Of a stretch of 64,000 nucleotides of DNA, positions 17,939 through 40,083 are shown piece after piece; the first letter of the stretch is position 1, and every line of letters starts with the position of its first letter. Source of the DNA: Streptomyces marianii. GTDB lineage: Bacteria; Actinomycetota; Actinomycetes; Streptomycetales; Streptomycetaceae. The stretch covers positions 3,828,001-3,892,000 of the forward strand of contig NZ_VAWE01000001.1 in assembly GCF_005795905.1 (NCBI RefSeq), read 5' to 3'. The translations under genes and the position numbers were made by a program. The notes beneath the pieces were generated by a model that made no database searches, had not been told where the DNA came from, and worked only from the letters and a program-made list of their open reading frames with translations.

Positions 17939-17944
17939 TGTCCC

Positions 17945-18728: not shown

Positions 18729-18747
18729 CGTTGCCGTCAAACACCCC

Positions 18748-19647: not shown

Positions 19648-19657
19648 ATAGTACGTG
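19638..19657. repeat. Core attachment-like repeat, copy A
   Basis: CCGCCAGCACATAGTACGTG, identical in four places (19638, 25572, 27353, 33480). On the minus strand it encodes the Hint segment TYYVLAG. Here it marks the proposed E3/E4 junction. Downstream sequence resembles copies B and C, not the RHS gene. Confidence 0.85.
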
Positions 19658-24282: not shown

Positions 24283-24497
24283 GGCTCCTGGAACAGGGCG
24301 TCGAACTCGTCGTGATCAAGGAACTCCTCGGCCACGCCCACATCGGCGTCACCGCCACCGTATACGCGCACGTACGCCTCCGCCTCCAGCGAGACGCCAT
24401 CGACACCCTCGGCACCGCACTCCACGGCCCGGCGATCACCGAGGCCGTCGGTGTTGACAGTGAAGAACCACCATCCCGTGCCCCCGCGTCCGCTGAC
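24283..24497 (+). pseudogene. Integrase C-terminal remnant (module E3)
   Basis: Only the last quarter remains: [40 protein letters not shown], then LGTALHGPAITEAVG. Matches the intact integrase from residue about 366. The normal stop (CGC TGA) is out of frame owing to a small indel. It follows the regulator gene by about 60 bases. Confidence 0.85.
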
Positions 24498-24637: not shown

Positions 24638-25270
24638 TTACGGCCGCCTACCGCTCTGAGGTCCATAGTTGGCGGTCAGAGCTGCGGCGTACACGTCCGG
24701 AACAGACCGCCCGCCGAAAGCCATCGGAAGATACGACTCCAACGCGCCTGACACGTCCAGGAAGGGTCCAAACTGAGCGCACCATTCACTGCGCGCGGCC
24801 GCGTCGGGAAACCCCTGGAACACCGCCACCTCGGGGTCCCTTTCACTCCAGCACCCCCACTTTGCGGATGCTCCGGTCAGCGCGACGACATTCGCCGAGA
24901 TCGAGATCGACCCCAGGGCGTCGCCGTCCGGCTCGAAGCCGATCGCAGCCCAGTAGTCGTCCTCACTGGCCTCGACGGACAGGGACACCGCCGGGTATCC
25001 CAGCCCCTCGGGGACATAGAATTCGTCACAGTCCGGCTCGAGAACTAGCAGATCGATATGGTCGTCTCCGTGCCAACGGGCCATCATGCAGAGCGCTGGC
25101 CAGATTTCCGGAGCGAGAACCACATCGAACTCACAGAACAACGAGTCTCCCGCACTCTCCCTGAAAACCTGGTCAGGGAACCTGGCATCAAGATTGAAGG
25201 TCACCGCGCTACGGGAGCGGATGGCAAGATACTCGTCACGGTCCGACATGAGCGAACTCTCGCCTAGCAT
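24638..25270 (-). CDS. Probable immunity protein of displaced toxin cassette E3
   Basis: 210 residues from ATG 25270, which overlaps the toxin stop (TGATG); a second start at 25249 has AGGCGAGAG upstream. Acidic, soluble, with EFDVVLAPEIWPALCMMARWHGDD and DEFYVPEGLGYPAVSLSVEASED. No family recognised. The tight overlap with the toxin tip is the basis for the immunity call. Confidence 0.65.
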   Translation of the reverse strand: MLGESSLMSDRDEYLAIRSRSAVTFNLDARFPDQVFRESAGDSLFCEFDVVLAPEIWPALCMMARWHGDDHIDLLVLEPDCDEFYVPEGLGYPAVSLSVEASEDDYWAAIGFEPDGDALGSISISANVVALTGASAKWGCWSERDPEVAVFQGFPDAAARSEWCAQFGPFLDVSGALESYLPMAFGGRSVPDVYAAALTANYGPQSGRRP

Positions 25271-25581
25271 CAGTAGTCCCCCAGTCTGATCTTGATGTCG
25301 GCCTTCTTCGATCCCGGCCTGTAGTAGTCCGCTGTCCATCCTTCGACAGTCTTGGCCTTGCCTCGCAGGAAGTACCGTGCCCCATCCTTCTGATATTCAA
25401 TGTTCGGCCCCCTTTCGAGGCAGGTCCATCCGTTAGCCTCAAGGTTCTCTCCGAATTCCGTAGGACCGACATCCGTCCGCACATTCTTCATGCGGGCCTT
25501 GGATTCTGTGATGTCCTCGTATTTCGATGTGGTCCGGCAATTGCTGTTGTGAACCAGGACCGGAGCCTCACCCGCCAGCAC
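25270..25581 (-). CDS. Orphan polymorphic-toxin tip with Hint tail (cassette E3)
   Basis: 103 residues from the GTG in the Hint tail (LAGEAPVLVHNSNC). The tip has EFGENLEANGWTCLERG, then YQKDGARYFLRGKAKTVEGW and TADYYRPGSKKADIKIRLGDY, a compact basic domain of a kind that recurs at the end of actinobacterial RHS proteins. An in-frame TGA lies 10 codons before the GTG, so no fusion with an upstream body is possible here. Enzymatic activity is not assignable from sequence alone. Confidence 0.75.
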   Translation of the reverse strand: MLAGEAPVLVHNSNCRTTSKYEDITESKARMKNVRTDVGPTEFGENLEANGWTCLERGPNIEYQKDGARYFLRGKAKTVEGWTADYYRPGSKKADIKIRLGDY

Positions 25582-25591
25582 ATAGTACGTG
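25572..25591. repeat. Core attachment-like repeat, copy B
   Basis: Identical 20-bp core at the proposed E2/E3 junction; encodes TYYVLAG on the minus strand. Confidence 0.85.
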
Positions 25592-25787: not shown

Positions 25788-26450
25788 TAGGCTCGCCAGT
25801 TCCTCGACGCCGCCCGCACGGACGGGCTCCACGCGCTGTACGAACTCGCGCTGCGCACCGGACTCCGCAAGGGCGAACTCCTGGGCCTCCTCTGGGAAGA
25901 CCTCGACCTCACAACCGGAACGGCCAGCATCCGCCGCTCGCTCCAGCGCACCCGCACCGGCGGCCTCACGTATCTGCCCACCAAGACCCGGGCGTCTGAG
26001 CGCCGTATCGCGCTCCCGACCGAATGCCTCTACTCCCTCAAGGAGCACAAACAGCAGCAGGACAAGGAGCGCGGGACAGCAGGGTCAGCCTGGCAGGACA
26101 GCGGCCTCGTCTTCACCACCCCTACCGGCCGGCCTCTCGACCCGGCCAACCTCACCCGCCGCTTCCGCAGCTTCCTCGACCGGGCCGGACTCCGACGCAT
26201 CCGCTTCCACGACCTCCGGCACTCGACCGCCACCCTGCTCCTGGAACAGGGCGTCGACCTCGTCGTGATCAAGGAACTCCTCGGCCACGCCCACATCGGC
26301 GTCACCGCCACCGTCTACGCCCACGTAAGGCTCCGCCTCCAGCGAGACGCCATCGACACCCTCAGCACCGCGCTCGACAGCCCGGAGATCACCATGACGG
26401 CCAACGGCGACGGCGACGAACCGCCCCCTTGCGCCGCCCTCGTCCGCTGA
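25788..26450 (+). pseudogene. Integrase C-terminal half, frame intact (module E2)
   Basis: About 220 codons without a stop, matching the intact integrase from residue about 219 to the end: [79 protein letters not shown]. All catalytic residues (Arg, HxxR, His, Tyr) are retained, but the N-terminal DNA-binding and core-binding regions and start are missing. First in-frame start is GTG 26265. Confidence 0.88.
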
Positions 26451-26451
26451 C

Positions 26452-26474
26452 GTTGCCGTCAACTACTGCCGTCA
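26452..26474. repeat. Paired arm-type repeat after E2 integrase remnant
   Basis: GTTGCCGTCA-A-CTACTGCCGTCA, starting 2 bases after the integrase TGA; identical to the E1 copy at 32293. Confidence 0.8.
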
Positions 26475-26536: not shown

Positions 26537-27025
26537 TCATAGGCCCCAGGTGGACTCACGGAACTGCCGCACCTCGGGCGCGCCCGTCACCCACTCGGAG
26601 ATGCGATTCCCGTCCTCGTCGATTTCACGGTGAGGCTCTACGTACCGCCACGGCTCTTGCGGGTCGAACGGTTCATCGAGCTCATCCAGGAAGATGAGCG
26701 AATTCTGGACGTGGATCACATCCCCGTCTCGATACATTGGCCAGCAGGAGATGAAATTACTGGCCGCCGGATCAGTGATCGAAGCAATGAGGCAAGAGGT
26801 CACCTTCTCGGAGCGTTCGATTTCCCTCAGCGCACTCTCCCAGCTTCGACAGTATTCATCCACTGACCAGAAGCTCAGGTCCATCAGGAATGTCTCCGTG
26901 AAGCTGCCGACCCAGATCCTGCCGACAGCCTCAGATGGTGACGGGGTCGCACCCTCCGAAACCGAATCATCGATCACCTCGATCGAGAATCCACTATTCC
27001 TTGAGGTAGTTGAGATCTGGGTCAT
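26537..27025 (-). CDS. CdiI-type immunity protein (cassette E2)
   Basis: 162 residues. It carries the pattern of the immunity protein of the Enterobacter cloacae CdiA system: LSFWSVDEYCRSWESALREI, then a segment with NFISCWPMYRDGDVIHVQN, LIFLDELDEPF, and DEDGNRISEWVTG. The start at 27025 lies within the toxin gene (32-base overlap); GTG 26977 is an alternative closer to the usual N-terminal length. Paired with a toxin of the matching family, which makes the assignment strong. It should bind and block the toxin in the cytoplasm. Confidence 0.82.
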   Translation of the reverse strand: MTQISTTSRNSGFSIEVIDDSVSEGATPSPSEAVGRIWVGSFTETFLMDLSFWSVDEYCRSWESALREIERSEKVTSCLIASITDPAASNFISCWPMYRDGDVIHVQNSLIFLDELDEPFDPQEPWRYVEPHREIDEDGNRISEWVTGAPEVRQFRESTWGL

Positions 27026-27362
27026 AGGTTCCGATCCGTTGCCCTCTGCGGTTGAACATCTTCCAGCCGTCCGTCACGTTATGGCCATCGACATCAGGCG
27101 TGATGTAGTTCTTCCCGTTGGAGAAGACGACCTGGCCATGGGAATTGAACGGCGCCTTCTGCGCGGGAATTCTTGTTCTGTACCCGAGTGCACCTGCCCT
27201 ATCGGCCACGGTCCCGGCATACAGCTCTCGATTCTGCCGACTGCGCTCAGCCACCGAGTCCGGGTGGTAGGGGTCGCCCTTGAGTGCAGGGGAAGAGGTA
27301 TATCCCTCCGGAAGGTCACAGTTGCTGTTGTGAACGAGTACCGGCGTGGCGCCCGCCAGCAC
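26994..27362 (-). CDS. Orphan toxin tip of Ntox21/CdiA-CT RNase type with Hint tail (cassette E2)
   Basis: 122 residues from the GTG in the Hint tail (LAGATPVLVHNSNC). The tip has RSRQNRELYAGTVADRAGAL, KAPFNSHGQVVFSNGKNYIT, PDVDGHNVTDGWKMFNRRG and RIGTYDPDLN. The GKNYITPDVDGHN...WKM pattern is that of the toxin family I know as Ntox21, which includes the 16S rRNA-cleaving CdiA-CT of Enterobacter cloacae. An in-frame TGA precedes the tail, so the tip is cut off from any RHS body. Probably silent here. Confidence 0.82.
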   Translation of the reverse strand: MLAGATPVLVHNSNCDLPEGYTSSPALKGDPYHPDSVAERSRQNRELYAGTVADRAGALGYRTRIPAQKAPFNSHGQVVFSNGKNYITPDVDGHNVTDGWKMFNRRGQRIGTYDPDLNYLKE

Positions 27363-27372
27363 ATAGTACGTG
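27353..27372. repeat. Core attachment-like repeat, copy C (proposed attL of E1)
   Basis: Same 20-bp core as at 33480. If E1 integrated by recombination at this sequence, this copy and the one in the RHS gene are its two ends. Confidence 0.85.
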
Positions 27373-27466
27373 TGGAAGCGGGGTCGCCGTCAGCTGCAAC
27401 TTCGCTGGTCAGGCTCCGGTTTGACAGCCGTTCCACGTCCGTGCGTGTGCACTGAAGTCCGCCGGT

Positions 27467-27488
27467 GTTGCCGTCACTACTGCCGTCA
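27467..27488. repeat. Paired arm-type repeat, 95 bp from core copy C
   Basis: GTTGCCGTCA, CTACTGCCGTCA. Proposed integrase arm sites on the attL side of E1. Confidence 0.75.
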
Positions 27489-27532
27489 GTGGTCTACACC
27501 GCCTGGGGAATTCCAGGAATTCCGAATGCGTG

Positions 27533-27769
27533 TCAAGCGGCTTTGTCGTGCGGGGTGAGGCTGATGGTCAGGTCGGCGCCGAGAGCCTGAGCCAGGCGGC
27601 GCAGGAGGGGAAGCGTTGGAACGGTCCCGCCGCCTTCGAAGCGGGAGATCTGCGGCTGTTTCATCCCGCACCGCTCGGCCAGCTCGGCTTGGGACAGCCC
27701 GAGCTCGATGCGCCGGTCGTGGACGAGTTGCCCGAGCTCACGGGCGAGCGCGGTAGGCGGGTCCTGCAT
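27533..27769 (-). CDS. XRE-family antitoxin-like DNA-binding protein
   Basis: 78 residues, ATG after GGAGGAACC. Helix-turn-helix IELGLSQAELAERCGMKQPQISRFEGGG with a short C-terminal extension (LGADLTISLTPHDKAA). Small HigA-like size. Fourteen bases behind the previous antitoxin-like gene, so the three genes 28502-27533 form one operon. Confidence 0.8.
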   Translation of the reverse strand: MQDPPTALARELGQLVHDRRIELGLSQAELAERCGMKQPQISRFEGGGTVPTLPLLRRLAQALGADLTISLTPHDKAA

Positions 27770-27783
27770 GGTTCCTCCCCGCC

Positions 27784-28122
27784 TCAGGCCGCTGGGGCGA
27801 CGATGGTGACGGTGGGCTCGTCTCCGCCAGCGAGGTGCACGTCCACCGTGAGGTCCAGCGCGCGGGCCAGGCGCATGATGACCGCGATGGGCGGCAGCTC
27901 GGTGGCCGTCTCGATGCCTTCGATGTCATCGACATCGACGTGCATGCGCTCGGCGAGGTCGGCCTCGCTCAGACCCAGCTGCTTACGCCGGTCGTAGACG
28001 GCCTTGCCCAACGTCATGGCGAGACCGGCCTCTTCGTAGACCCGGTCGTACTCGGGGTCAGCGTCCAGGTGCTCGCCCAGCAGCTGGCGGTGGCGACGGG
28101 TCCTCCATTCGCTGTGGTTCAT
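27784..28122 (-). CDS. XRE-family antitoxin of HigA type
   Basis: 112 residues. The ATG overlaps the toxin stop (ATGA) and has AAGGAGA upstream. Helix-turn-helix RRKQLGLSEADLAERMHVDV followed by DDIEGIETATELPPIAVIMRLARAL and a C-terminal strand (DLTVDVHLAGGDEPTVTIVAP). Toxin-first gene order is that of HigBA modules. Probably represses its own operon. Confidence 0.82.
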   Translation of the reverse strand: MNHSEWRTRRHRQLLGEHLDADPEYDRVYEEAGLAMTLGKAVYDRRKQLGLSEADLAERMHVDVDDIEGIETATELPPIAVIMRLARALDLTVDVHLAGGDEPTVTIVAPAA

Positions 28123-28502
28123 CGGCTCTCCTTGAGGTTGCGGCTGTAGAGGTCGTGCTCGGCGGCGGCTTCATGCTCTGCCTCGCACCATCGCTGTGCG
28201 GCGTGGGCGCGGTCCACTTCGGCCTGCTCACGCATCTTGGTCTTGCGGAACACGGTGAGCAGCACGACGCGTCGGCCGGGCGCCAGCCAGTAGGTGATCC
28301 GCTGATGAGCATCGCCGAGGCGGAAGCGCAGCTCGCGGAGCTTGCCGCCCAGGTGGCGGGAGTGCGGTTCGTCGAGCGTGGTGGGCTGCTCGGCGAGCAG
28401 GTCGGCGACGCGTTCGGCCTGCTTGTAGTGATGGGCGGGAATGCTCTCCAGCCACAGCCGTACCTCCGGCTCGATCTCGATCGAGTAGCGCCCGCCGTCC
28501 AT
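28119..28502 (-). CDS. RelE/HigB-like type II toxin
   Basis: 127 residues. EIEPEVRLWLESIPAHHYKQ, SRHLGGKLRELRFRLGDAHQRITYWLAPGRRVVLLTVFRKTKMR: the GKLRELR and RITYWLAPGRRVVLLTVFRK motifs are those of the HigB/Gp49-type RelE toxins, which cleave mRNA at the ribosome. The C-terminal 30 residues are helical. An upstream GTG (VPYIIGA) is an alternative start. Element-maintenance role likely. Confidence 0.82.
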   Translation of the reverse strand: MDGGRYSIEIEPEVRLWLESIPAHHYKQAERVADLLAEQPTTLDEPHSRHLGGKLRELRFRLGDAHQRITYWLAPGRRVVLLTVFRKTKMREQAEVDRAHAAQRWCEAEHEAAAEHDLYSRNLKESR

Positions 28503-29037
28503 AGCGCCGATGATATATGGCACGGAGTGCGAGAGCGCGACTTCGTAGCTCAGGTCATGTGCCGTTGCCGCGATCGCAGCCACTCCGGCGTCGCACGCCC
28601 CCATGGTCCCCCTCATCCTGATGCGGCGGCGGTGCCGCAAACCAGCGGCAACCGGCCGGGGCGGCGCAGGGCCGGCTCCTTCCGGCGGGATCGGGCCCGA
28701 GCGGGAGAGGCAGCGTGCGGCCGGGCTGGTGCGTCGCCCAGTCTGGCGGCGCGGGGACCGGGGCGGAGGGGTCGGTCTGCCACGGGCGGCCGGGAGCTCG
28801 CTCCCCGCCGGGGGCGACGCCGGCCGCCGCCCTCGGTGACCGGCGAGGGATGTTGAGGGTCGGCCCCCTGGTCGGCCCTTGCCTGCGATCCGGCCGTAGG
28901 ACGGTCGTAGGCGATAGCTTGCTGCGCGAGGAGCCCGGCTCGTTCGTCCCGGCGATCTGGCCGGTTGCCGCTCCCGCAGCCCGGCTGCCGCGTCGGCTCG
29001 GTGCGCGCCCAGTAGCACCTGATCGCGGGAGTCAACG
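28503..29037. other. Intergenic region upstream of repSA
   Basis: About 535 bases without a convincing gene. It separates the divergent toxin-antitoxin operon and the repSA operon, so it should hold both promoters. I could not identify a clear replication origin (iteron or nick-site hairpin) in it. Confidence 0.4.
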
Positions 29038-30801
29038 GTGGGGTTTGTCGGCGACGGCAGCCAGCCTTGGCAGGCGGGGGCCGCCTTGAACCTCGTAGAG
29101 CTCCCGTACCCCGCAATCGTTCCGACCGCCTCGCGCCCGTCGCAGGCGTTCACCACGCCGAGCGGCTCGGCGGACGTCACCGCCCCGGCGGCCGGGCGGT
29201 CGGCGCTGGAGCGCCGCGCGAGGCTGACCGGCAGGCTGGCGAAGCTCGCCGCCGCCGGACACCTCGCACCCCTCGCACAGCAGATCGGCACGCTCGGCGG
29301 CTGCGCGCATCCGATCCGCCTCACCGGACACCGCACCCGACTCGACAGCGCGACGGGCGAGATCCTCGACCACATCGATTCCGGGCAGCTCCCGGCGGGC
29401 GAGCTGCTGGTCCGCTGCGGCAACCGCCGCGCCACCCGCTGTCCGGCCTGCTCGACCGTCTACCGGTACGACACCTACCAGCTCATCGCCGCCGGACTGC
29501 GCGGGGGCAGGACGGTCCCGGCGAGCGTGGCCGCGCACCCGCGCGTGTTCGCCACCCTGACCGCGCCCGGCTTCGGGCCCGTCCACAACCAGCCCGACTC
29601 CGGCCGCTGCCACTGCGGCCACACCCACCCCGACGACAACCCGCTCCTCGGCACCCCGCTCGACCCAGAGCGCTACGACTACGCGGGCGCGGTCCTGTGG
29701 AACGCGCACGCCCCGGCCCTGTGGGCACGCTTCACCACCCACCTGCGACGCGAGATCGCCAAAGCCTCCGGGCTCACCCAGCGCAGCCTGCGCTACCACG
29801 CGACGCTGTCGTACGCCAAGGTCGCCGAGTACCAGAAACGCGGCCAAGTCCACTTCCACGCCGTCATCCGCCTCGACGGACCCACCGGCCCCACCAGCAC
29901 ACCACCCGCCTGGGCAACCACCGAGCTCCTCAACCAGGCCGTCCGTGCCGCCGCCGCGCGCACCCGCGTCCACCACGCAGGTAAGCCCCAGGACGAAGGC
30001 CGCAGTGGGTGGTTGGTGTTCCGGTTCGGGCGGCAGGTCGATGTCCGGGCGATCCACGGCACCGACTTCACCGGAGACGGCCCAGTCACAGAGCGGCACG
30101 TCGCCGCCTACATCGCCAAGTACGCCACCAAGGGCGCCGAGACCACCACCGGCACCCTCGACCGCCGCCTCCGCCTCCTCGCCGAACTCGTCACCCACGA
30201 CATCACCGACCACGCCCGCCGCATGATCCACACCGCCTGGCACCTCGCCACCAGGCCCCAGCACGCCCACCTCCGCCTGCGGCAATGGGCCCACATGCTC
30301 GGCTTCCGAGGCCACGTCTCCACCCGCACCCGCCACTACTCCACCGCCCTCGCCCACCTCCGAGCCGAACGCGCCGCCTGGCGAACGGGCCAGCCCGACG
30401 CCCAAACCCCCGCCCAGGCGTCGGCGTCGGCGGAGACGCAGGCCGGCCAGACAGGCGGCAGTCCAGTCAGCGACCGCGCCGGACACTCCACTGACCTGGC
30501 CGCCGGTCACCGACCCGGTCACGGTCATTCCACCGGTCACCGTCCCGGTCGCCGCGATATCGCCGCACGGCCCGACGGTTCGGACACCACGCTCGTCATC
30601 TCCCACTGGCAGTACGCCGGAACCGGCCTCCTGCCCGAACTCGAACACCTCGCCGACCTCCTGGCCGCGAAACGGCAGACCCGACCCGAGCAACCGACCC
30701 GAACCCGACGCTCGAAGCGCTCCGGCGACCGCGCCGGTCACCCGGTCGGTCACTCCACTGATCGGCTGACCAGTGCTGTCCGGGCGGGGGCCGTCGCGTG
30801 A
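29038..30801 (+). CDS. repSA: RepSA-type rolling-circle replication initiator
   Basis: 587 residues, GTG start with CGGGAG 6 bases upstream. Visible: CGNRRATRCPACSTVYRYDTYQLI (Cys-rich region), CHCGHTHPDD, the HUH metal motif in QVHFHAVIRLDG, and a Tyr-containing motif AAYIAKYATKGAE. This is the order found in the pSAM2 RepSA family, which nicks the element to start replication of the excised circle. The last 150 residues are low-complexity with GHSTD/GHRPG repeats. It overlaps xis by 4 bases (GTGA). Confidence 0.9.
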   Translation: MGFVGDGSQPWQAGAALNLVELPYPAIVPTASRPSQAFTTPSGSADVTAPAAGRSALERRARLTGRLAKLAAAGHLAPLAQQIGTLGGCAHPIRLTGHRTRLDSATGEILDHIDSGQLPAGELLVRCGNRRATRCPACSTVYRYDTYQLIAAGLRGGRTVPASVAAHPRVFATLTAPGFGPVHNQPDSGRCHCGHTHPDDNPLLGTPLDPERYDYAGAVLWNAHAPALWARFTTHLRREIAKASGLTQRSLRYHATLSYAKVAEYQKRGQVHFHAVIRLDGPTGPTSTPPAWATTELLNQAVRAAAARTRVHHAGKPQDEGRSGWLVFRFGRQVDVRAIHGTDFTGDGPVTERHVAAYIAKYATKGAETTTGTLDRRLRLLAELVTHDITDHARRMIHTAWHLATRPQHAHLRLRQWAHMLGFRGHVSTRTRHYSTALAHLRAERAAWRTGQPDAQTPAQASASAETQAGQTGGSPVSDRAGHSTDLAAGHRPGHGHSTGHRPGRRDIAARPDGSDTTLVISHWQYAGTGLLPELEHLADLLAAKRQTRPEQPTRTRRSKRSGDRAGHPVGHSTDRLTSAVRAGAVA

Positions 30802-30986
30802 CCGCCGGCACGGAACTCCTCACCGTCCCCCAGGTCATGGCTCGCCTCCAGCTCGGCTGCTCTGCCGTCTACGACCTCGTCCGCACCCGGCAGCTCGCCT
30901 CCATCACCCTCGGCCGCGCCCGCCGCATCCCCACACACGCGCTCACCGACTTCATCCGCACCCGCCTCGACCAGGAAGCCGCCTGA
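30798..30986 (+). CDS. xis: Excisionase (helix-turn-helix 17 type)
   Basis: 62 residues. ELLTVPQVMARLQLGCSAVYDLVRTRQLASITLGRARRIPTHALTDF is the MerR-like winged-helix fold of actinobacterial excisionases. Overlaps repSA upstream and int downstream (TGATG). It would bend attachment-site DNA to direct Int to excision. Confidence 0.9.
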   Translation: MTAGTELLTVPQVMARLQLGCSAVYDLVRTRQLASITLGRARRIPTHALTDFIRTRLDQEAA

Positions 30987-32260
30987 TGACCACGCCCCGA
31001 GACAGCAGCCCCTCCCGCCGCGTGCGCGCCAACGGCGATGGAACCGTCTACCAGCGCAAGGACGGCCGCTGGGAAGCCGCCGGATACGTCCTCGCCCCCG
31101 GCAACACCCGCAAGCGCATCCGCGTCTACGGCACCACCCGCAAAGACGCACTCGCCAAGCTCACCGAGAAGACCGCCTCCAGCAACCGCGGCCTCCCCGT
31201 CCTCTCCGCGCAGGGCAGCGTGGCCGCGTACCTGACGTACTGGCTGGAGAACGTCGCCCTCCACCACCTGCGCGAAACCACCCACACCCGCTACACCACC
31301 TGCGTCGACCGGTACCTCGTCCCCGGCCTGGGCAAGAAGAAGCTGGCCAAGCTCACCGCCAAGGACGTCCGCACCTGGCTCAACCAGCTCCGCACCATCT
31401 GCCAGTGCTGCACGCGCGGCATCGACGCCCGCCGGGACCAGCCCCGCTGCTGCGCCGCCGGCCAGTGCTGCCACAAGCCGCTCTCCCCGCTGACGCTCAC
31501 CTACATCCACTCGGTGCTCAAGTCCGCCCTGGAGCACGCCGTCCGTGAAGAAGAGATCCCGCGCAACGTCGCCCGCAACGTCCGCACCGGCACCCCACGA
31601 CCCCGCCGCTTCGAACCCCTCACCGCCGACGAAGCCCGCCACCTCCTCACCGCAGCGCGCGGACACAGGCTGCACGCGCTGTTCGAACTCGCCCTCCACA
31701 CCGGACTCCGCAAGGGCGAACTCCTCGGCCTGCGCTGGGAAGACCTCGACCTCGACGCCGGCACCGCCGCAATCCGCCGAACCTTGCAGCGCACCAGCGC
31801 AGGCGGGCTCACCACGCTGCCCACCAAGACCCGGGCCTCCGAGCGCCGCATCGCCCTCCCCACCCGCTGCGTCCAGTCACTGAAGCTCCACGACGAACAG
31901 CAGAAGACCGAGCGTGAGGCCGCGGGCACCGCGTGGCAGCACGACGGGTACGCGTTCACCACTGCGCAGGGCCGACCGATCGACCCGACCAACCTCACCC
32001 GCACCTTCACCACGCTCCTCCGCAAGGCCGGCCTCCGCCGCATACGCTTCCACGACCTCCGACACTCCACCGCCACCCTGCTCCTGGAACAGGGAGTCGA
32101 ACTCGTCGTGATCAAGGAACTCCTCGGCCACGCCCACATCGGCGTCGCCGCCACCGTCTACGCCCACATACGCCTCCGCCTCCAGCGCCAGGCCATAGAC
32201 ACCCTCGGCACCGCCCTTGACACCTGGCATCGACGAGTCGACCTGCGACAACGGCGATGA
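30986..32260 (+). CDS. int: Tyrosine integrase of element E1
   Basis: 424 residues. N-terminal arm-binding part (NGDGTVYQRKDGRWEAAGYV), core-binding SAM-like domain (YLTYWLENVALHHLRETTHT), then the catalytic domain with Arg242 (TGLRKGE), His356-Arg359 (HDLRH), His382 (GHAHIG) and Tyr392. A Cys-rich insertion at residues 139-162 (CQCC...RCC...QCCHK) is unusual and may bind zinc. It is the only intact member of this integrase family in the window; four truncated relatives lie at 12.5, 17.9, 24.3 and 25.8 kb. Confidence 0.94.
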   Translation: MTTPRDSSPSRRVRANGDGTVYQRKDGRWEAAGYVLAPGNTRKRIRVYGTTRKDALAKLTEKTASSNRGLPVLSAQGSVAAYLTYWLENVALHHLRETTHTRYTTCVDRYLVPGLGKKKLAKLTAKDVRTWLNQLRTICQCCTRGIDARRDQPRCCAAGQCCHKPLSPLTLTYIHSVLKSALEHAVREEEIPRNVARNVRTGTPRPRRFEPLTADEARHLLTAARGHRLHALFELALHTGLRKGELLGLRWEDLDLDAGTAAIRRTLQRTSAGGLTTLPTKTRASERRIALPTRCVQSLKLHDEQQKTEREAAGTAWQHDGYAFTTAQGRPIDPTNLTRTFTTLLRKAGLRRIRFHDLRHSTATLLLEQGVELVVIKELLGHAHIGVAATVYAHIRLRLQRQAIDTLGTALDTWHRRVDLRQRR

Positions 32261-32292
32261 CCCGCCGATGTGCGGAGCCACCGTCCGCTGAC

Positions 32293-32315
32293 GTTGCCGT
32301 CAACTACTGCCGTCA
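32293..32315. repeat. Paired arm-type repeat after the E1 integrase
   Basis: GTTGCCGTCA-A-CTACTGCCGTCA, 32 bases after the integrase stop. Identical to the E2 copy. Confidence 0.8.
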
Positions 32316-32325
32316 CCCCACTCAC

Positions 32326-32356
32326 AACCCCCGCCAAGACGCATCCGGCGGGGGTT
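32326..32356. terminator. Perfect 10-bp hairpin between int and immunity gene (E1)
   Basis: AACCCCCGCC, 11-base loop, GGCGGGGGTT. Same position as the hairpins of E2, E3 and E4. Confidence 0.8.
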
Positions 32357-32489
32357 CGAGTTTGCTAACGCCATTCACCACAAAGGCTTCGGCATGAGCA
32401 TCACTCACCCAGCAACCAATGTACCAGTGGCGCAACCTCAGATAGTTTCAGAATTGGCCAAATTCGACCTTTCCAGACAAAACCATGAA

Positions 32490-32936
32490 CTACGTCGCCC
32501 TGGATGAGAAGGTAACAATGGGACCATCTTCGGAACCGATAACCCGAACATCGAAACTCCGGTGAGGAAATTCGGCAGACAACGCAGCACTCCACGTTTT
32601 TGCAACACATGCGGCAAAGAATTCCTGCGCCCGCCAGTCCTCTTCAACATCATCCGAATCGACAATCTGCCAGACTCGCAACTGATTCAGCGTCGCCTCA
32701 ATTTTTCGGATGTTACCGGAGAGGCTCTCACGCCAGGATTTAAAATTCGACTCTTCGTAAGCACGATCCCACAGCACACATCCCTCCACTTCGACAAAAC
32801 GCGGCCAGAAGATCCGAGAGAATGCCACCATCACCCCTAGATCGCCATGACCTTTCACATAGTCTAGGTAATCAACTCCCCCTCCCCATTCCTCCACCCA
32901 GGACTTAATTCCGGGGTAATCCATCGGGTCATTCAA
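32490..32936 (-). CDS. Probable immunity protein for the current RHS toxin tip
   Basis: 148 residues, ATG with GAGGAG 9 bases upstream. MNDPMDYPGIKSWVEEWGGG, then VKGHGDLGVMVAFSRIFWPRF and VWQIVDSDDVEEDW. Soluble, acidic, AT-rich compared with the chromosome. It follows the RHS stop by 199 bases, the usual place for an immunity gene. No family recognised. Confidence 0.68.
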   Translation of the reverse strand: MNDPMDYPGIKSWVEEWGGGVDYLDYVKGHGDLGVMVAFSRIFWPRFVEVEGCVLWDRAYEESNFKSWRESLSGNIRKIEATLNQLRVWQIVDSDDVEEDWRAQEFFAACVAKTWSAALSAEFPHRSFDVRVIGSEDGPIVTFSSRAT

Positions 32937-33135
32937 GGTTAGCTCCTCGCGTCACTTGCATAGAGGGTCAGTCATTCGAACCACGCAGAGAGATGGTGGC
33001 AACCAACAGAGATCCAGAAATTCAGAGACCTCAGGCGCCCGCCATGTTACTGCGAGCGCCTGAGGTGGTGCACTTCTACCAGTATTCAATTATCTATGGT
33101 CGGCTTGTATTTCAGCCATCCATATCTGACTTGGC

Positions 33136-36100
33136 CTACCGGCAGCCGCATAGCTCTTCCTCGGGGCGTAGAGGCCGCGGCATCTTCTCCCAGTTGCGAA
33201 AAACCTGGCCCGTTTTTGGATTGACATGCTTTGCCATATCGAGAATATGCGGGGCCGGTATTCCGGCATGCGATGCCGAGTTAGGATCAAGGTCCGCGCG
33301 CTGAGAAATTATACCTTCCTCATCATAACGCGCATACGCAGTAACCGTCCCATCCTCTTTCTGACGGAAAAGCGTTTCCCCGGGGTTAGCAGTCTTGGGA
33401 AAGCGACCGCTGACCTGCCGCGCACCCGAGAGGCTCAATCCCCCTGTATTGCAGTTGTGAACGAGTACCGGAGTCTCGCCCGCCAGCACATAGTACGTGT
33501 GAACGTCCGCAACAGTGAGGTTGTACGTGTCCTGATAAGCACCGTAAGTGCGGGTCGCCGTTATGGAGACCGTGGCGCCGTCGTCGGTGCGCAGCGTCAT
33601 GCCCGGCTCGAGGTCCCCGGCGTCGAGCCAGGCCTGCTCCGATTCGGACCAGAAGGGGTGGTGGTCCGTCGTGGCGACGATCTCTGCGCCGTCTTCCGTG
33701 GAGACCGTCAGGTCCACGTAGGACTTGTCGTCCTCCGTCAGGATCGTGGCGGTGACCGTCTTGAGTGCCGTCTGCCCTGATACGGGGTCGGTGGCAACAA
33801 CCTTGTCGCCGACTTCCAGATCCTCGATGGGCTTGGTCTCGCCATCCTCCATCAGGACTTCGGTGCCCGCGACGAAGCTGTGCTTGCGAGCGCTGCAGGG
33901 AGGCGCGGACATGATCCAGTCAAGGAACTTGCCGCCCTTACGGCTGGCAGCAATGCCGTCCCCGAGCACGGGGACCAGGGCGACCAGGCTCCAGCCGGCC
34001 TCGCTCCAGTTGCCCTCCGTGGCATAGAGGACGGCGTTGCCGACGTCAGCGGCGGCTCCGAGCCCGGGAGTGAAGCCGGCCGCGTCGAGGGCGCGATGGG
34101 CCTCGGCCCTGTTCCAGTCCCTCTCCTGCTTCGGAACCCACTGGCAGCCGACGCCGTCCTTTCGGCTGGCGCACTTCATCTGCTCCTGCTGGATCCTGAC
34201 GTGTCTCTCGTTGACGCCGCCGCCGTACCTGGTCTTGACCGTGACCGTGGTGCGCCTGTTGTTGCCCGTCGAGATCTGCGTCTTCGTGGAGTTGTAGATC
34301 CATGTGCCGTTGGGGCCCATGGTCATGTAGTCCCTGGTGTAGCCGCCCTTTCCATCGCTGCAGCCGCGCTCACAGTCAGTGATCGGACGCAATCCCGTTG
34401 GGTCGGAGTACGACACCGGGCTGCCGTTGGCGTACGTGTATCCGTTCATCTGCATCGGGTCGGTCATGTCGATGAGCGGGTCGGCGCTGATGAAGCGGCC
34501 GGTGGTGGAGTCGTACTCGCGGGCGCCGATGTGGGTCAGGCCCGTGGCGGGGTCGTCGATGCCGACTCCCAGGTAGGTGCGGCGGTCGGGCCAGTCGGCG
34601 GGCTCGGTGCCGCGGGGGTTGCCGTACGGGTCGTACTTGCGGCGCAGGATTCCCTGGCCGGCTGTCTGGTCGACGGAGTTCGTGGCCGTGTTGTGGTGGT
34701 CGGCGAGCAGGACGGTCAGCTTGTGGCCCGTGGTCTTGCCGCCCGTGCTGCGGACCGTGGTCGGGGCGCCCGGGTGGCTGTAGTAGCGGCGGGCGTCCAT
34801 GGCCTGGCCGGAGGCGTTGACGGTGATCTCGGCTTCGCCGAGGTAGAGGGTGCGGGTGGTGCCGTCGTCCTCGATCAGGCGGTTGCCCGAGGCGTCGTAC
34901 AGGTAGGTGACGTTGGGTGTGCCGTTGTCGTCCGTGTCGACCGACGTGAGCTTGTTGCGGCGGTCCCACGTCAGGGCCTGGGTGTCGCCGCCGATCACCC
35001 GCTGGGTGGTGTTGCCGAAGCTGTCGTAGGCGTAGGTCTGCTGCGAGTTCACCGTCGAGCCGGGCTCGCGCACGGTCGACTCGACCTTGGTGAGGGTGTG
35101 GGGCTGGACCGTGGGTGCGGGCTGGGAGCCGCCGATGGTGGTGCCGTGGGTGTAGGTGTGGATGTCGTCCAGGTCCGGGTCGGCGAGGTCGTGGACGGTC
35201 ATCCGCGTGCGGTTGCCGATCGCGTCGAACGCGTACGACTGCCAGTAGCCGCCGCCGTCGATGCCCGGGGACACCTCGGCGCGGTCGGGGCCCGAGCCCT
35301 GGGCGCCCGACGCGGTCGGGCAGCCCGTGGTGCCCGTCCAGGCGTGGACCAGGCGGCCCATCGGATCGTAGGCGAAGCACTGGCGGTCCACGCGTGACGA
35401 CGACTGGGTGTCGGTGATCGAGGTGATGTTGCCGACGGTGTCGTAGCCGTACGTCAGTGCCGAGATCCGGGACGGGTTGAGCGTCTCGCGGTCCGTGACC
35501 GACTGGTGGATGCGGCCGGTGTTGGCGTTGTAGATGTTGGTCGTCCACACACGCCGCGGCGCCTCCCCGGAGACCGTGCGCAGCACCTCTCCGTAGGGGC
35601 TGTAGCGGGTGTCGGCCGTGTACCAGGCGAGTCCCGACGTGGTGACCGGTGCACCCTCGCCGTCGTAGCGGGTGATCACCTTCTCCGCCGCCAGACCACC
35701 GGGCGTCGCCGGGAGCTGGACCGACTGGAGCCTGCCCGTCTCGGTGTAGGAGTGGGTGTAGGCGTAGGTGCCCGCCAGGCCCGTCGTCACCGACGTCGAC
35801 GGGATCGTGGTCTTCGAGCCCGTCGGCCGGTACTCGCTGTCGTAACCGGTCACCTCGCTCGTGAACGCGGCACCGTTGTGATAGCGGGTGGAGGCGACCG
35901 GGTGGCCCTTGGCTCCCGGCAGCGAGTCGAACGTCCACTTGGCCACGAGGGACCCGGTCGGTGAATCGTCGCGGAGCTCGGTCTGCCGGCCGAGGACGTC
36001 GTAGAGCGTGTGCTGCTCGCGGCCCTGGCCGTCCTTCGACCAGACCCGCTGGTCGAGGGCGTTGTAGCCGAACGTCGCCGATCCCATGTCCGGGTCCGTC

Positions 36101-39100
36101 GACGCCGTCAGCCGGCCGCGCGCGTCGTAGGTGTACGTCCAGTCGTTGCCCTCGGCGTCCGTGACCTGGGCGAGCTTGCCGCGCGGGTCGTACACGTACG
36201 AGGTGTCGGTCTCGGTCGTGAGGTCGGTCGCGGTGAAGTGCTGGATCAGGGAGGTCCGGCCCAGCGCGTCCGTCCAGGTCTTCGCCGCGCGGCTGCCTGA
36301 CAGCGGCGTCGTGCCGTCGGCCGACATGCCCGTGCGGGTCAGCGTCCAGTCACCGGAGTACTGGACCGTGGCCGAGTGCTGCGGCACGTCCTCGTGGAGC
36401 GTCGTCGTGCGGATCGCCCGGCCGAGGCCGTCGTACGCCGTCTCCGTGGAGTTCGGCACCTCGAACACGGTTTCCGGGAAGAAGAGCAGCGCCTCCGGCT
36501 CGCCCTCCGCGAGGTAGCCGTTGTTGGTCTGGCGGACCGTGCCGCCCGCGTTGTACAGGGTGTCGGTGACGATCCGGCCGCCGCCGAGCGCCTCCGCCTG
36601 GGTCTGGCGCGGCCGCAGCAGACCGTCGTAGATCGCGACCGTGTCCTCGTAGGTGCCGTTGTCGCGCAGGGTGCGGGTGGTGACGGTCGGCGGCTTGTTG
36701 TCCGCGATCTGGTACGTGAAGAGTGCCGACGCGCTGTCCGTGCCCTGGGTGCGCGACGGGGACCAGACACCGGTGACTCGACCGAGGTTGTCGTAACTGC
36801 TGCTGGTCTTGCGGCCGTTGGGGTCGGTGACGGACAGCACGGTGCCGCGGGCGGGGTCCGAGTCCGAAGTGGAGGTGTGTCCCAACGCGTTGGTCGCCGT
36901 GACCTCGAAGGCCGGCCCGGTGACGGGGCTGTAGGCGGTGGTGGTGGAGTTGCCCGCGGCATCGGTGACCTTGGTGACGCGGCCCAGCGCGTCGTACGTC
37001 GTCCGCTGGGAGGTGACCCAGCCGGTTCCGGCGGCGTCGACCGTGTCGGCCTGGAACGGCAGGCCCTTGACCGGGTTGGTGCCGAAGGCACCCAGCGCGT
37101 CGTACGAGGTGCGGACGTCGGAGACGACCTGGTCGCCGGTCGCGGAAGCGGCCGCGGCGCAGTCGCCCACTGTCGTGCGGGACCGCTCGGGCAGACCGAT
37201 CAGGTGCTTGCCGATGTTGTGGACGTACGAGGTCGTCGCGCATGTCCGGTCGCCCGTGGTCCAGCCGCCCGAGCCGTCGGGGGTGAGGCTGCGGGTGTAC
37301 GTGGTGACCGGGAGGTCGTGGGTGGACTCGTACGTCGTCGTCGCCCGTACCGTCCGGGTGGCACCACCGCTGACCGTCTGGATCGAGTCCGTCCGGGTCG
37401 TGCCCGTGCGGTACGCCTCCAGCGCGGGCAGGCCCTCCCGTGCCCGGGAGGCGGTCTTCCTGCTGTACGGCCAGGTCAGTTCGCGCGCGACGACGCTGCC
37501 GCCAGCCTTGGTGTAGGTGATGGTCTCCGCGACCCGGCCCTGGTGGGCCGGCAGATCCTCGCCCAGGGTCTCGGTGCCCGTGGAGTCCTTCACGGTGACC
37601 GCGGTGCGGCCGGCGTCGCCGGACATGCCGCGGAAGTAGCGGGTACGGGTCTGGGACTGCTCGGTCGCGTCGGACTGGCCCGCGTTGGCGGTGACGCCCT
37701 TTTTCACGACCACGCCGGCGTAGCCGCGCCACTGGTCGTACGTGCGCAGCTCCGACTTGGTGAACTCGTCGGTGCCCTTGGCCCAGGCGGCGCCGCCCTC
37801 GTAGGTGTAGTCGGTGACCACGTCGGGCTGCCGCGCGACCCGGTCCTTCTCGGTGACGCTGTCGACGACGTACTTGTTGAACCACTCCAGCGGCGGTGTC
37901 TCCAGGTCCGGGTCGGGCGACCAGTGGACCGGGAAGCAACGGGAGGTATTGGCGGAGGGTGCGGGGTGGGTCGTGCCGACGGGGCACGGGTCGGAGTAGT
38001 CGACGTGTATCTCGGCACCCGTCTCCGTGCGGATGGTCTCCACCCGCAGTCGGTCGAAGTCCGGGGTCTGGTCGGTGGTTCCCTTCGCGACACGGTTGGG
38101 CATGTCGACGACGTTCGCCAGGAACGAGACCGGCGGGAGCGAGCTGCTCAGCTGATTGCCGTCCTCGTCCCGGGCGGTGCCGTAGCCGGTGCGGGTGATC
38201 GACTCCAGCCAGAGCGGCGGATGGGTGTCGGTGCGCTGCTTGGGGAACGACTGGTGCAGGTTCCAGCGGTCGACCAGGGACATCGACGTCGTGCCGGGAG
38301 TGCGCTGGCCGTAGGTGGTCACCGCCGTCAGCCGCATCCGGCTCCAGAAGGTGGGGGCGGAGACGTAGCAGTTGGCGGCGCCGGCCTTGCAGTGCAGCGT
38401 GGAGGGGGTGTCCCACCACGGCTGCTTGTCCTCGTAGTTCTTGGACTCGAACTCGGTGTCCGAGCAGTCCGTGGCGCCTTCCCTGGTGCAGCGCTCGTCG
38501 GCGGTGAAGACGACCTTGCCGGCGGGGGTGCCGGTCAGGTTGTCGGAGCGCAGTCCGTAGAGGATCTGGGTCGGATGGCCGCCGCGGACGTAGGGGACCG
38601 CCTGCTTGAACTTCTCGTTCTTGGCGTAGCGGTTGGTCTCCTGCTTCCAGTCGACGACCATGGCGTTGCCGTGGACGTCCTCGACGTAGTCGAGGTTCCA
38701 GCGCCAGGCCTGGGTGCAGGAGGAGTCGGCGTACGCGGTGGCGTGGCACGGTTCGCCGTCGTGGTTGCCGAAGACCGGCACGGTGAAGGCGGAGTTGGTG
38801 GCCGTGGCCCGCCCCGGCAGGGCGTTGCGGCCGAACCAGTAGCGGGTGCCGTCGCGGGTCGTGACGACCCAGTACTCACCGTCGTACTCGCCGGTCTGGG
38901 ACGCCTTCGCGCTGCCGTCCTTGGCCTTGTACTCGACCCTGGCGCCGTCGTCGTTGGCGGCGACCCATGCACCGCTGGCATCGTCGTGGACCAGCTCGGT
39001 CGACGAGCCGCCCAGCGACATCACGAGGTTCTCGCTCGCCCAGCACAGGTCGGACTTCTTCTTGTCGGCGGTGTTGTCGTTGTTCGGGCTGTTCTTCCGG

Positions 39101-39108
39101 TCTTCCGG
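33136..39108 (-). pseudogene. RHS polymorphic toxin, C-terminal 85% with Hint domain and toxin tip
   Basis: About 1990 codons, beginning at DRKNSPNNDNTADKKKSDLC where the insertion cuts it. RHS/YD repeats (many YDxxGR units) run to the core marker TGLTHIGAREYDSTTGRFIS; then DPTGLRPITDC, a linker, and a Hint domain (FVAGTEVLMEDGETKPIEDL to TTDHHPFW and HTYYVLAGETPVLVHNC). The last about 100 residues are the tip: RQKEDGTVTAYARYDEEGI, HAGIPAPHILDMAKHVNPKTG, resembling polymorphic toxin type 24. Hint should self-cleave to free the tip. Expression requires the N-terminal part now at 44697-45824; no start is evident at the cut. Confidence 0.88.
33480..33499. repeat. Core repeat inside the RHS Hint coding region (proposed attR of E1)
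   Basis: The same 20-bp core as copies A-C. On its high-coordinate side the sequence is RHS/Hint coding DNA with no arm repeat; on its low-coordinate side the Hint end and toxin tip follow in frame. Confidence 0.85.
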
Positions 39109-39264
39109 GCTTCTCTGCACTTCACTCTCATGGGTGAAGGCGGGTATGTGGCTCGTCAAAGGGCCTCCGAGATGGATGGGATGGGTCAGGGGTGGTGGCG
39201 GCGCCGGCGGCCGCCGGGCAGATCCCCCGGCGTCGGTAAGATCAGCGCTCTCATGGGGGGTGCG

Positions 39265-40083
39265 ATGCGAACATCGGGGCTGGGCGGCAAGGGGCAGAAG
39301 TACGCGCTGGCCTCGGATGAGGTCGACAGCGATTTCTGGGGTTTCGCTCACGAGGCCGAGGGGCTGTTCACGCCCCTGCCGGATGAGGAAAAAGCGCGCC
39401 GAGTGCACCTCGCGGGTTGCCTCCCGCAGGGTGGCCTACTGAGGTGCGTTGACCACGTCGGCAGTCGTCGTGCCGTGGCGGGAAACGCCTGGGTCGAGCT
39501 CCTCGACGGCGACGGTGCCACCATGGGGTCCTACTTCGTCAACGACGTCACCGTCATCGACGTCAAGCCCTCCGCCAGCGGTGTCGGCCTCGTCGACCTC
39601 ACGGTGACGCTTTGGTGTGAGAACGCCCTGCCCGGAGCGGAACGACTGTGGGAGCTGGTCCGCACCGGGCACCTGAACCACACCGGAATGTGGCACGAAC
39701 TCGCACCCGAGGACCGACACGCGTGGCTGTCGGTGGCCCTGTGGTCCCGGGAGTACCAATGCCAGGGGAAGCCCGATGCGCCTGCGGGCCAGGTGTTCAC
39801 CTTGGACGGCCGACACATCGTTGGCAGGGACACCTTCTACTGCGCGATCGGTGAGGCCATCAACGGACCCGGTGGATACTTCGGCTGGAACCTGGACGCT
39901 CTGGACGACTGTCTGAGAGGCGGCTGGGGCGCGACCTCTCCGTTCACCTTGCACTGGGAGTTCTCGGCCGAGGCTCGGACGCGGTTGGCAGAGCGCGTGC
40001 CCGCCGGTGATCGCGAGCTTGCGCTGTTCGACCTCCTCCTGGAGATCTTCGAGGAACGGGGCGTGCGCGTGATCCTTCGATGA
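39265..40083 (+). CDS. Barstar-family protein (RNase inhibitor-like)
   Basis: 272 residues from ATG 39265 (GGGGGG upstream; ATG 39253 alternative). The N-terminal 170 residues are unrecognised (WGFAHEAEGLFTPLPDEE, ELVRTGHLNHTGMWHELAPE). The C-terminal 90 residues match barstar: FTLDGRHIVGRDTFYCAIGEAINGPGGYFGWNLDALDDCLRGG and FDLLLEIFEERGVRVIL. Barstar proteins bind RNases; here it may be an immunity gene carried by the insertion. No barnase-type gene is adjacent. Confidence 0.78.
   Translation: MRTSGLGGKGQKYALASDEVDSDFWGFAHEAEGLFTPLPDEEKARRVHLAGCLPQGGLLRCVDHVGSRRAVAGNAWVELLDGDGATMGSYFVNDVTVIDVKPSASGVGLVDLTVTLWCENALPGAERLWELVRTGHLNHTGMWHELAPEDRHAWLSVALWSREYQCQGKPDAPAGQVFTLDGRHIVGRDTFYCAIGEAINGPGGYFGWNLDALDDCLRGGWGATSPFTLHWEFSAEARTRLAERVPAGDRELALFDLLLEIFEERGVRVILR

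What the first reader, a model, noticed from the sequence alone, without database searches (positions are those of the whole stretch)
27353..33499. Integrative element that appears to insert in frame into the RHS Hint sequence and replace the toxin tip
Seen: E1 carries repSA-xis-int with 4-base/1-base overlaps, then an immunity gene and a toxin tip whose coding sequence continues in frame into the RHS Hint domain. An identical 20-bp core (CCGCCAGCACATAGTACGTG) sits at both ends, one inside the RHS gene, the other heading a displaced tip. Inference: Int recombines at this core, so entry of the element puts its own tip behind the RHS body and pushes the resident tip and immunity gene downstream. 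Excision would restore the previous tip. Tip displacement in RHS and CDI loci is known; a dedicated integrase targeting the Hint motif to do it is, as far as I know, not described.
Basis: partly seen in the sequence, partly recalled or inferred. Interest (0 to 1): 0.95.

Follow-up and report, generated by a model that had tools for sequence, protein, structure and literature searches.

The report
Integrase elements that swap toxin tips
In Streptomyces, a family of mobile-element DNA sits at one short fixed site inside genes for large predicted toxins, each element carrying its own predicted toxin tip and antidote gene, so that every insertion likely gives the host protein a new warhead and pushes the old one aside.

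Summary
E1 (27352-33499) is a RepSA-Xis-tyrosine-integrase element with an exact 21-bp core at both ends: one in the Hint domain of an RHS gene, one heading a displaced tip. The locus is deeper than reported: four core-tip modules and five integrase copies, all but E1's broken. Exact cores occur in 129 of 392 Streptomyces genomes. Of 58 close Int loci, 3 are cut by contig ends; 53 of the other 55 have the core 0.8-3.1 kb beyond int, while nine of nine sister integrases sit beside tRNA genes. In 40 Int-anchored Hint genes the second core Tyr is always the rare TAT. Tips shared by unrelated RHS bodies, and bodies with unrelated tips, switch at the core; E1's own tip lies behind a 36%-identical RHS in a S. 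chartreusis plasmid, switching at core base 1/2. Recombination, excision and toxin swapping remain inferred; nothing was assayed. No transfer gene was found in E1, and this strain's RHS gene is interrupted upstream. Ten literature searches listed no paper on such an integrase; two Rhs/T6SS papers state that none was known.

The parts
33136..39408 (-). RHS gene, 3' part: RHS repeats, PT-HINT domain, tip 1. The N-terminal part of the gene lies beyond a 5.6-kb insertion (about 39111-44726)
33479..33499 (-). core 1 (attL): 21-bp core inside the Hint domain, codes for TYYVLAG
33136..33489 (-). tip 1 carried by E1 (Ntox24, PF15529)
32490..32936 (-). candidate immunity gene 1 (position only; no Pfam or NCBIfam match)
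32294..32315 (+). arm repeat at the int 3' end (TTGCCGTCAACTACTGCCGTCA)
30986..32260 (+). E1 tyrosine integrase (PF00589, SAM-like N domain)
30798..30986 (+). E1 Xis-like helix-turn-helix protein
29038..30801 (+). E1 RepSA replication initiator (PF20199 E 4.7e-140; below the NCBIfam RepSA equivalog cut-off)
27784..28502 (-). E1 cargo: HTH antitoxin-like gene and Gp49-like (PF05973) gene, type II TA-like by resemblance; start of the second gene uncertain
27467..27489 (+). arm repeat about 116 bp from the displaced core (attR side)
27352..27372 (-). core 2 (attR of E1), heads the displaced tip 2
26994..27362 (-). displaced tip 2 (Ntox21, PF15526), open frame in register with the core
26537..27025 (-). 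immunity gene 2 (CdiI_N, PF18228, E 1.2e-49)
25791..26452 (+). E2 integrase remnant (76% identical, one stop inside)
25571..25591 (-). core 3, heads displaced tip 3
25270..25581 (-). displaced tip 3 (no Pfam match)
24638..25339 (-). candidate immunity gene 3 (position only)
24284..24485 (+). E3 integrase 3' remnant
19637..19657 (-). core 4, heads displaced tip 4
19312..19647 (-). displaced tip 4 (no Pfam match)
18847..19311 (-). candidate immunity gene 4 (position only)
17936..18730 (+). E4 integrase remnant in several frames
12503..12946 (+). fifth integrase 3' remnant; the chromosomal flank shared with relative G230 ends here

Best explanation
E1 is an element with pSAM2-type genes (RepSA, Xis, tyrosine integrase) lying at a 21-bp core inside the Hint domain of an RHS toxin gene, and its integrase likely put it there by recombining that core with the element's own copy, so that the element's predicted toxin tip and immunity gene took the place of the resident pair. 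Shown: the anatomy, its recurrence across Streptomyces, the DNA-level conservation of the core, the arm repeats, and exchange of tips between genomes at the core. Inferred: (1) the circular element carries arm repeat - 116 bp - core - tip - immunity gene - second arm repeat - int; (2) Int crosses over within ACGTACTATGT of the core; (3) the RHS frame is kept because core and frame register agree between tips; (4) the old tip and immunity gene end up downstream behind a new core, and repeated entry builds a stack whose older integrases decay; (5) Xis-assisted excision would bring the earlier tip back. The lineage likely arose from tRNA-targeting elements, which restore the 3' end of a tRNA; here the restored 3' end would be a whole new toxin domain with its antidote.
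For: Exact core in 129 of 392 Streptomyces genomes; reversed-pattern control 0 in each row. In 15 of 16 paired-core loci an Int homologue lies between cores. Of 58 Int loci (62-91% identity), 3 are cut by contig ends; 53 of the remaining 55 have a core (at most five changes) beyond the int 3' end, median 1.1 kb; the first core lies in a full Hint in 40 and behind an arm repeat (stacked) in 12 of 53; all 30 second cores carry an arm repeat 100-120 bp before them; no core on the opposite strand. Nine of nine sister integrases (48-52%) sit beside tRNA-Arg or tRNA-Thr, seven with the same arm repeat; in a tree 42 of 42 Hint-type Ints form one clade (support 0.70), joined to 9 of 9 tRNA sisters at 1.0. 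Codon constraint. Among 36 pairs of sites in RHS-like frames that share a tip but not the body, upstream identity equals that of random pairs (0.42, 0.48, 0.69 against 0.38, 0.47, 0.67); 8 pairs share the RHS body (85-100% over about 1.2 kb) and not the tip. Differences at core bases 13, 16, 19 largely vanish in shared-tip pairs, those at base 1 do not. Relative G230: same RHS body, 96.8% over 5663 bp ending 31 bp past the core, other tip and element. E1's own tip behind an unrelated RHS in a S. chartreusis plasmid, switch at core base 1/2. Fuller relatives carry FtsK-type transfer genes.
Against: No excised circle, junction read or recombination assay is available. No FtsK/TraB homologue was found in the window, so E1's own transfer is open. 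The int-side arm mostly lies about 0.7-1.3 kb from the core with tip and immunity gene between, unlike the compact sites of the tRNA-type sisters. Two of 55 assessable Int loci have no core (L097, beside an IS30-like transposase frame; L063, Int cut at residue 396). One pair of cores has no Int between (L040, two full Hint genes), and the displaced cores of L052 show no arm repeat. The arm repeat at int is missing in 9 of 58 loci, 3 of them contig-cut. Support for the Hint-Int clade is only 0.70. Core bases 13, 16, 19 still differ in 3-8% of shared-tip pairs. Of 123 cores in named genomes, 31 lie in a Hint without sign of an element. Many sites were fetched because they hold the exact core, so and parts carry that bias; the codon test used loci found by Int. 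The RHS gene of this strain is interrupted upstream, so tip 1 may not be delivered here.
Confidence: 0.92

Rival explanations
1. Ordinary homologous recombination (classical Rhs C-terminal displacement) swaps the tips between conserved Hint sequences, and the integrase elements are passengers that happen to live nearby.
For: C-terminal displacement with orphan tips is described in Gram-negative bacteria (PMC2935791, passages; PMC5361080, passages). The Hint C-terminus is conserved in protein.
Against: In the 36 shared-tip pairs with both sites in an RHS-like frame the DNA just upstream of the core is no more alike than in random pairs; in the S. chartreusis case identity goes from 40% over 60 bp to 116 identical bases in a row at core base 2. 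Codons are fixed against background only in the core. Int sits at a regular place beside core and arms.
Confidence: 0.04
2. The integrase does insert at the core, but the Hint is only a widespread docking site: the tip and antidote are there to keep the host gene intact or to make loss of the element costly (addiction), and a change of weapon is a by-product.
For: tRNA-type sisters lie at the 3' end of their target gene; that such elements carry the target's 3' end is general knowledge. E1 also carries a TA-like pair. Immunity carried on the element would make excision risky among siblings that keep it (inference).
Against: The tips are highly diverse: 186 nucleotide clusters among 245 sites and 16 Pfam families among 46 tips, which a mere repair patch or one addiction pair would not need.
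Confidence: 0.3
3. The core is conserved for a reason at the level of protein or mRNA (Hint self-cleavage, translation) and merely marks where similar genes resemble each other.
For: The core lies in the C-terminal part of the Hint, and TYYVLAG is conserved in protein.
Against: The same 21 bases also head displaced tips outside a recognised Hint, behind an arm repeat (23 of 32 such cores, against 0 of 91 inside a Hint). A rare codon (TAT, 6%) is fixed in 40 of 40.
Confidence: 0.02

Closest known systems
Actinomycete integrative and conjugative elements (AICEs), pSAM2 type
   Same: RepSA, HTH Xis and tyrosine Int in overlapping order; annotated relatives add FtsK-type translocase, DUF2637 and GntR or winged-helix regulator genes; tandem accretion and decay at one site are described for AICEs (PMC9513070, passages).
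   Different: Described AICE sites are mostly tRNA 3' ends, with some protein genes such as rlmN (PMC3218068, passages; PMC9513070, passages). Here the site is a toxin gene, and tip plus immunity gene lie between core and int-side arm repeat. No transfer gene was found in E1.
Rhs C-terminal displacement (Jackson et al. 2009)
   Same: A full RHS gene followed by orphan tips; a circular tip-bearing intermediate was proposed (PMC2935791, passages).
   Different: [quoted passage not shown] Here tips come with an integrase and a short core.
V. cholerae T6SS effector-immunity arrays
   Same: Successive addition leaves older immunity genes downstream (PMC5361080, passages).
   Different: [quoted passage not shown]
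Rhs-associated integrases of bee gut Snodgrassella and Gilliamella
   Same: An integrase-like gene near Rhs genes, suggested to help capture of Rhs sequences (PMC5727410, passages).
   Different: The passages seen show no core or junction and leave the role open. Relatedness to the present Int was not tested.
Prophages with polymorphic toxin-immunity cassettes next to att sites (Mycobacterium abscessus)
   Same: Toxin-immunity genes lie close to attL or attR (PMC8092301, passages).
   Different: There the toxin gene with its own N-terminal WXG-100 domain is on the phage; the passages describe no replacement of the tip of a host toxin gene.
Phage 21 / e14 integration in icd (recalled, no call)
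   Same: The element carries an alternative 3' end of its target gene and keeps the frame.
   Different: The replaced end keeps the same function; here it is an unrelated toxin domain with its antidote.

Membership tests
AICE (pSAM2 type) | RepSA-type replication initiator | tested here: met
   PF20199 E 4.7e-140; NCBIfam RepSA 508.7 bits, below its equivalog cut-off of 700
AICE (pSAM2 type) | Tyrosine integrase with excisionase-like HTH protein | tested here: met
AICE (pSAM2 type) | FtsK/SpoIIIE-type transfer protein between the att sites | tested here: not met
   No hit in the window with one relative's FtsK-type protein; so E1 is AICE-derived, not a complete AICE. Relatives: 16 of 58 Int loci have a hit
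AICE (pSAM2 type) | Direct-repeat att sites at both ends | tested here: met
AICE (pSAM2 type) | Integration at a tRNA 3' end (usual, not obligatory) | tested here: not met
   Only tRNA found in the window at 54295-54390; the site is in the Hint
AICE (pSAM2 type) | Excision and conjugative transfer | not testable with these tools
   needs an assay
Rhs C-terminal displacement locus | Full RHS gene plus downstream orphan tips with immunity genes | tested here: met
   (one of four immunity genes recognised by Pfam); the RHS 5' part is separated by an insertion
Rhs C-terminal displacement locus | Exchange by homologous recombination through conserved sequence | tested here: not met
   upstream identity of 36 shared-tip pairs equals random pairs; one-base switch
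Integron | One fixed integrase beside the array; cassettes without an integrase of their own | tested here: not met
   each of the four modules has its own int or int remnant
Shufflon / invertible tips | Inverted recombination sites | tested here: not met
   0 cores on the opposite strand in 58 Int loci

The most novel reading that the evidence does not exclude
A dedicated class of conjugative elements in actinobacteria uses a toxin gene as its chromosomal dock and a toxin-immunity pair as part of its attachment site, so that horizontal transfer, integration and re-arming of a secreted weapon are one reaction; these elements are the mobile reservoir of Rhs tips that was postulated in 2009 without a known integrase.
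Probability: 0.85. Interest if true: 0.95.

Novelty: new variant of a known kind. Interest (0 to 1): 0.93.

Why it matters
How polymorphic toxins exchange their C-terminal tips has been put down to homologous or illegitimate recombination; a site-specific enzyme was considered, and none was known (PMC2935791, PMC5361080, passages). Here is a candidate enzyme, its site at near base resolution, and a large natural record in public genomes, so the question becomes directly testable. It would show weapon and immunity moving between strains together and landing in frame behind RHS bodies that keep the core, explain stacks of orphan tips as a fossil record of insertions, and suggest a site for exchanging C-terminal domains. 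It also suggests how an integrase can move from a tRNA to a protein gene by carrying the gene's 3' end with it.

Tried and rejected
Homologous recombination, docking-only and protein-level conservation were weighed as rivals (see there). Integron and shufflon readings were rejected (an int or int remnant in each module; no opposite-strand cores). Phage records gave one Int match at E 1e-40 or better, 31% identical, so a phage origin was not pursued. Plasmid records gave 14 with a match at E 1e-60; 12 of them at 70% identity or more, all on records over 150 kb, so these look like integrated copies rather than free circles. Tandem elements in L051 were compared as a stand-in for the circular junction: 97.9% alike over 2252 bp and 89% over 463 bp but not over the tip, so they are not one duplicated element. 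The GntR query held a stop and is not used. No fold prediction, protein database search or viral contig scan was run.

The Int pieces of L065 and L066 are identical; both are among the three contig-cut loci.

Lead not followed: whether sites of the form ACGTACTATGTACTCGC mark a second specificity.
Full report
What is there. The window lies in a 9.0-Mb genome (G000) that I take for a Streptomyces: named genomes with the same site are mostly Streptomyces. On the minus strand an RHS gene runs through RHS repeats and a pretoxin Hint domain into an Ntox24 tip. At 33480 it codes for TYYVLAG in the Hint; at the other three it heads an open tip frame in the same register, each followed by a small gene in the place of an immunity gene. 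For module 2 the pair is recognisable: Ntox21 and CdiI_N, E 1.2e-49. Between cores 1 and 2 lie RepSA, an HTH Xis and a tyrosine integrase, overlapping by 4 and 1 bases, plus a TA-like pair. Integrase remnants belong to modules 2, 3 and 4, and a fifth lies at 12503-12946. So E1 is the newest layer of a stack.

Attachment site anatomy. A paired repeat, TGACGGCA-spacer-GACGGCAAC in RHS orientation, stands about 116 bp before each of the window's three displaced cores and again at the 3' end of E1's int; it is absent before core 1. The same holds, at 116-118 bp, in 14 of the 16 paired-core loci described next; L040 and L052 have no such repeat. I read these repeats as arm-type sites of Int (inference).

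Survey by core. Exact cores occur in 129 of 392 Streptomyces genomes; the reversed pattern gives 0 in each row. From the printed part of that list I fetched the 16 places, own genome apart, with two or more cores on one strand within about 15 kb: 15 have an Int homologue between cores, and in 15 the first core lies in a long Hint match. L040 is two genes with full Hints and no Int between; L043 begins in the middle of a stack.

Survey by Int. Int was searched in 246 Streptomyces genomes: 49 have a match at E 1e-120 or better, 68 matches in all: E1's own, 58 of 62-91% identity, and 9 of 48-52%. The 58 loci, counted: three are cut by contig ends; 53 of the other 55 have a core with at most five changes beyond the int 3' end, 789-3127 bp away, median 1104; 40 of the 53 lie in a full Hint and 12 behind an arm repeat, as in a stack; L078 shows neither within the limits set, and L110 shows both. 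Thirty loci show a second core, all 30 with an arm repeat 100-120 bp before it. No core lies on the other strand. The arm repeat at int is found in 49 of 58. The two loci without a core are L097, beside an IS30-like transposase frame (name recalled), and L063, whose Int ends at residue 396. The nine sister integrases each sit 113-477 bp from a tRNA gene, eight tRNA-Arg and one tRNA-Thr, and seven show the same arm repeat between tRNA and int. In a tree of 56 Ints the 42 usable Hint-type ones form one clade (0.70), the nine tRNA-type ones another (0.998), and the two join at 1.0; five more distant Ints of the own genome also lie beside tRNAs.

DNA-level constraint. In 40 Int-anchored Hint genes most conserved codons outside the core follow the usage of the same RHS genes; four columns before the core exceed it by more than 0.3, none of them fixed. 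In the core Thr is ACG in 39 of 39 (background 0.23), Tyr TAC in 40 of 40 (0.94), Tyr TAT in 40 of 40 (0.06), Val GTG in 32 of 40 (0.20), Ala GCG in 29 of 40 (0.27) (39 genes). A search for any coding of TYYVLAG in 101 genomes, linked to Int or not, printed 150 matches: by my hand count 136 begin ACGTACTA, 123 use TAT for the second Tyr, and 73 are the exact core. So the constraint is weaker, though clear, in the unselected set.

Exchange at the core. All fetched loci gave 304 core sites, 245 unique. In 91 pairs the tip side is alike (at least 75% over at least 250 bp) and no upstream match was recorded; the shared stretch begins within 14 nt of the core in 89. Upstream sequence was searched only between sites in RHS-like open frames, which covers 36 of the 91 pairs; the others include a displaced or unclassified site. 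For the 36, identity in three steps upstream (0.42, 0.48, 0.69) equals that of 2508 random pairs (0.38, 0.47, 0.67), and downstream it is far above them; for the 38 pairs of one RHS-framed and one displaced site it is 0.35, 0.32, 0.30 against 0.32, 0.30, 0.26. A further 18 pairs share tip and upstream, as related loci would. Eight pairs show the reverse: RHS body 85-100% alike over about 1.2 kb up to the core and no similarity of tips; these are all the pairs at that level, three of them from one trio, and one pair lies within a single genome. Of 186 tip clusters 17 hold both a front-line and a displaced member. In sites found by Int or by the RHS locus, differences at core bases 13, 16 and 19 drop from 0.26, 0.24, 0.40 in random pairs to 0.05, 0.03, 0.08 in shared-tip pairs, while base 1 stays at 0.11-0.12, which puts the crossover within bases 2-12, ACGTACTATGT, a block that is nearly but not wholly invariant (bases 2 and 10 vary in a few sites). 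Some sites were fetched because they hold the exact core, so site counts are not prevalence estimates.

Two cases touch this window. Relative G230 has the same locus (flanks 94-97% identical): the RHS body agrees at 96.8% over 5663 bp and the agreement ends 31 bp past the core, near the end of the PVLVHN-coding stretch that tips share; beyond lies another tip and another broken integrase, 4.2 kb in place of 20.9 kb. And E1's own tip, candidate immunity gene and int 3' end (1407 bp, 94.8%) lie in a Streptomyces chartreusis plasmid behind an RHS that is 36% identical over the 500 residues before the core; identity goes from 40% (60 bp before the core) to 116 identical bases in a row from core base 2.

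Cargo and transfer. Of 46 tips (42 of the Int-anchored set and the window's four), Pfam matches 16 families at E 0.001, none in more than two members, so at most 21 tips are recognised. A relative's FtsK-type protein is found in 16 of 58 Int loci and not in this window. Annotated plasmid records show fuller elements: GntR or winged-helix regulator, FtsK, DUF2637, replication initiator, HTH, integrase, small gene, HINT or nuclease-fold polymorphic toxin gene (not every gene is listed in each). The 28 elements with both cores span 2.4-12.4 kb. Of 123 core instances there, 91 lie in a recognised Hint, none with an arm repeat before it; of the other 32, 23 have one. Of the 91, 31 have an Int homologue within 3.5 kb downstream, 14 only an arm repeat, 15 are cut short and 31 show neither.

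Mechanism. The simplest account is that Int recombines the element's core with the core in the Hint. The frame is kept because tips start in the same register. The resident tip moves downstream behind a new core and the element's arm repeat. Further entries repeat this; older integrases decay and fix the stack. Excision would return the next tip. Recombination, excision, delivery and immunity are inferred.

Limits in this strain. Compared with G230, where one frame of 2403 aa runs through the core, the window's RHS gene is split by about 5.6 kb (39111-44726) with tyrosine-recombinase genes. So whether tip 1 is delivered here is doubtful. E1 shows no transfer gene.

Known and new. AICEs, Rhs tip displacement, and toxin-immunity genes beside prophage att sites are known. 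Ten full-text searches listed no paper whose title or abstract start describes an integrase that targets the Hint or swaps Rhs tips; several lists were capped, I read passages of eight papers only, and most subscription papers are not held. Jackson et al. [quoted passage not shown] Kirchberger et al. 2017 state that no evidence for an integrase exists; Steele et al. 2017 noted Rhs-associated integrases and left their role open. I file it as a new variant of a known kind: an AICE-derived family with a new target and a new consequence.

Noticed in passing
window 39111-44726: A 5.6-kb stretch absent from relative G230 splits the RHS gene; it holds large tyrosine-recombinase-like genes (43461-44681 by sequence; 41012-43468, PF00589 E 2.8e-18), reminiscent of Tn554-type transposition genes (recalled).
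   Followed up: partly
window 19816-22520: Module E3 carries a methyltransferase, an asparagine-synthase-like protein (PF00733) and a small possible precursor gene, resembling part of a lasso-peptide-type cluster (recalled).
   Followed up: no
window 13160-14680: A transposase-like gene (13318-14667) with inverted ends of the type GGGTCTTCGAATTTAGTGGGGG lies between the fifth integrase remnant and E4.
   Followed up: no
G000:C1:1809914, 2763676, 7436477, 7442233: Four more core sites in the own genome with 0-2 changes and no Int hit nearby; three lie in Hint-coding frames, the one at 7442233 does not. The three could be further landing sites.
   Followed up: partly
L075 and L088 (genome G080): Two RHS loci of one genome are identical over 1200 bp up to the core and carry unrelated tips; this genome has six close Int matches.
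   Followed up: partly
40 Int-anchored Hint genes, codon after the core in PVLVHN: Val in VLVHN is coded by the rare GTT in 29 of 40 (background 0.05), so some DNA constraint or shared descent reaches past the 21-bp core on the tip side.
   Followed up: no
window 27362, 25581, 19647: The core itself contains a GTG from which each displaced tip could start; whether displaced tips are expressed is open.
   Followed up: no
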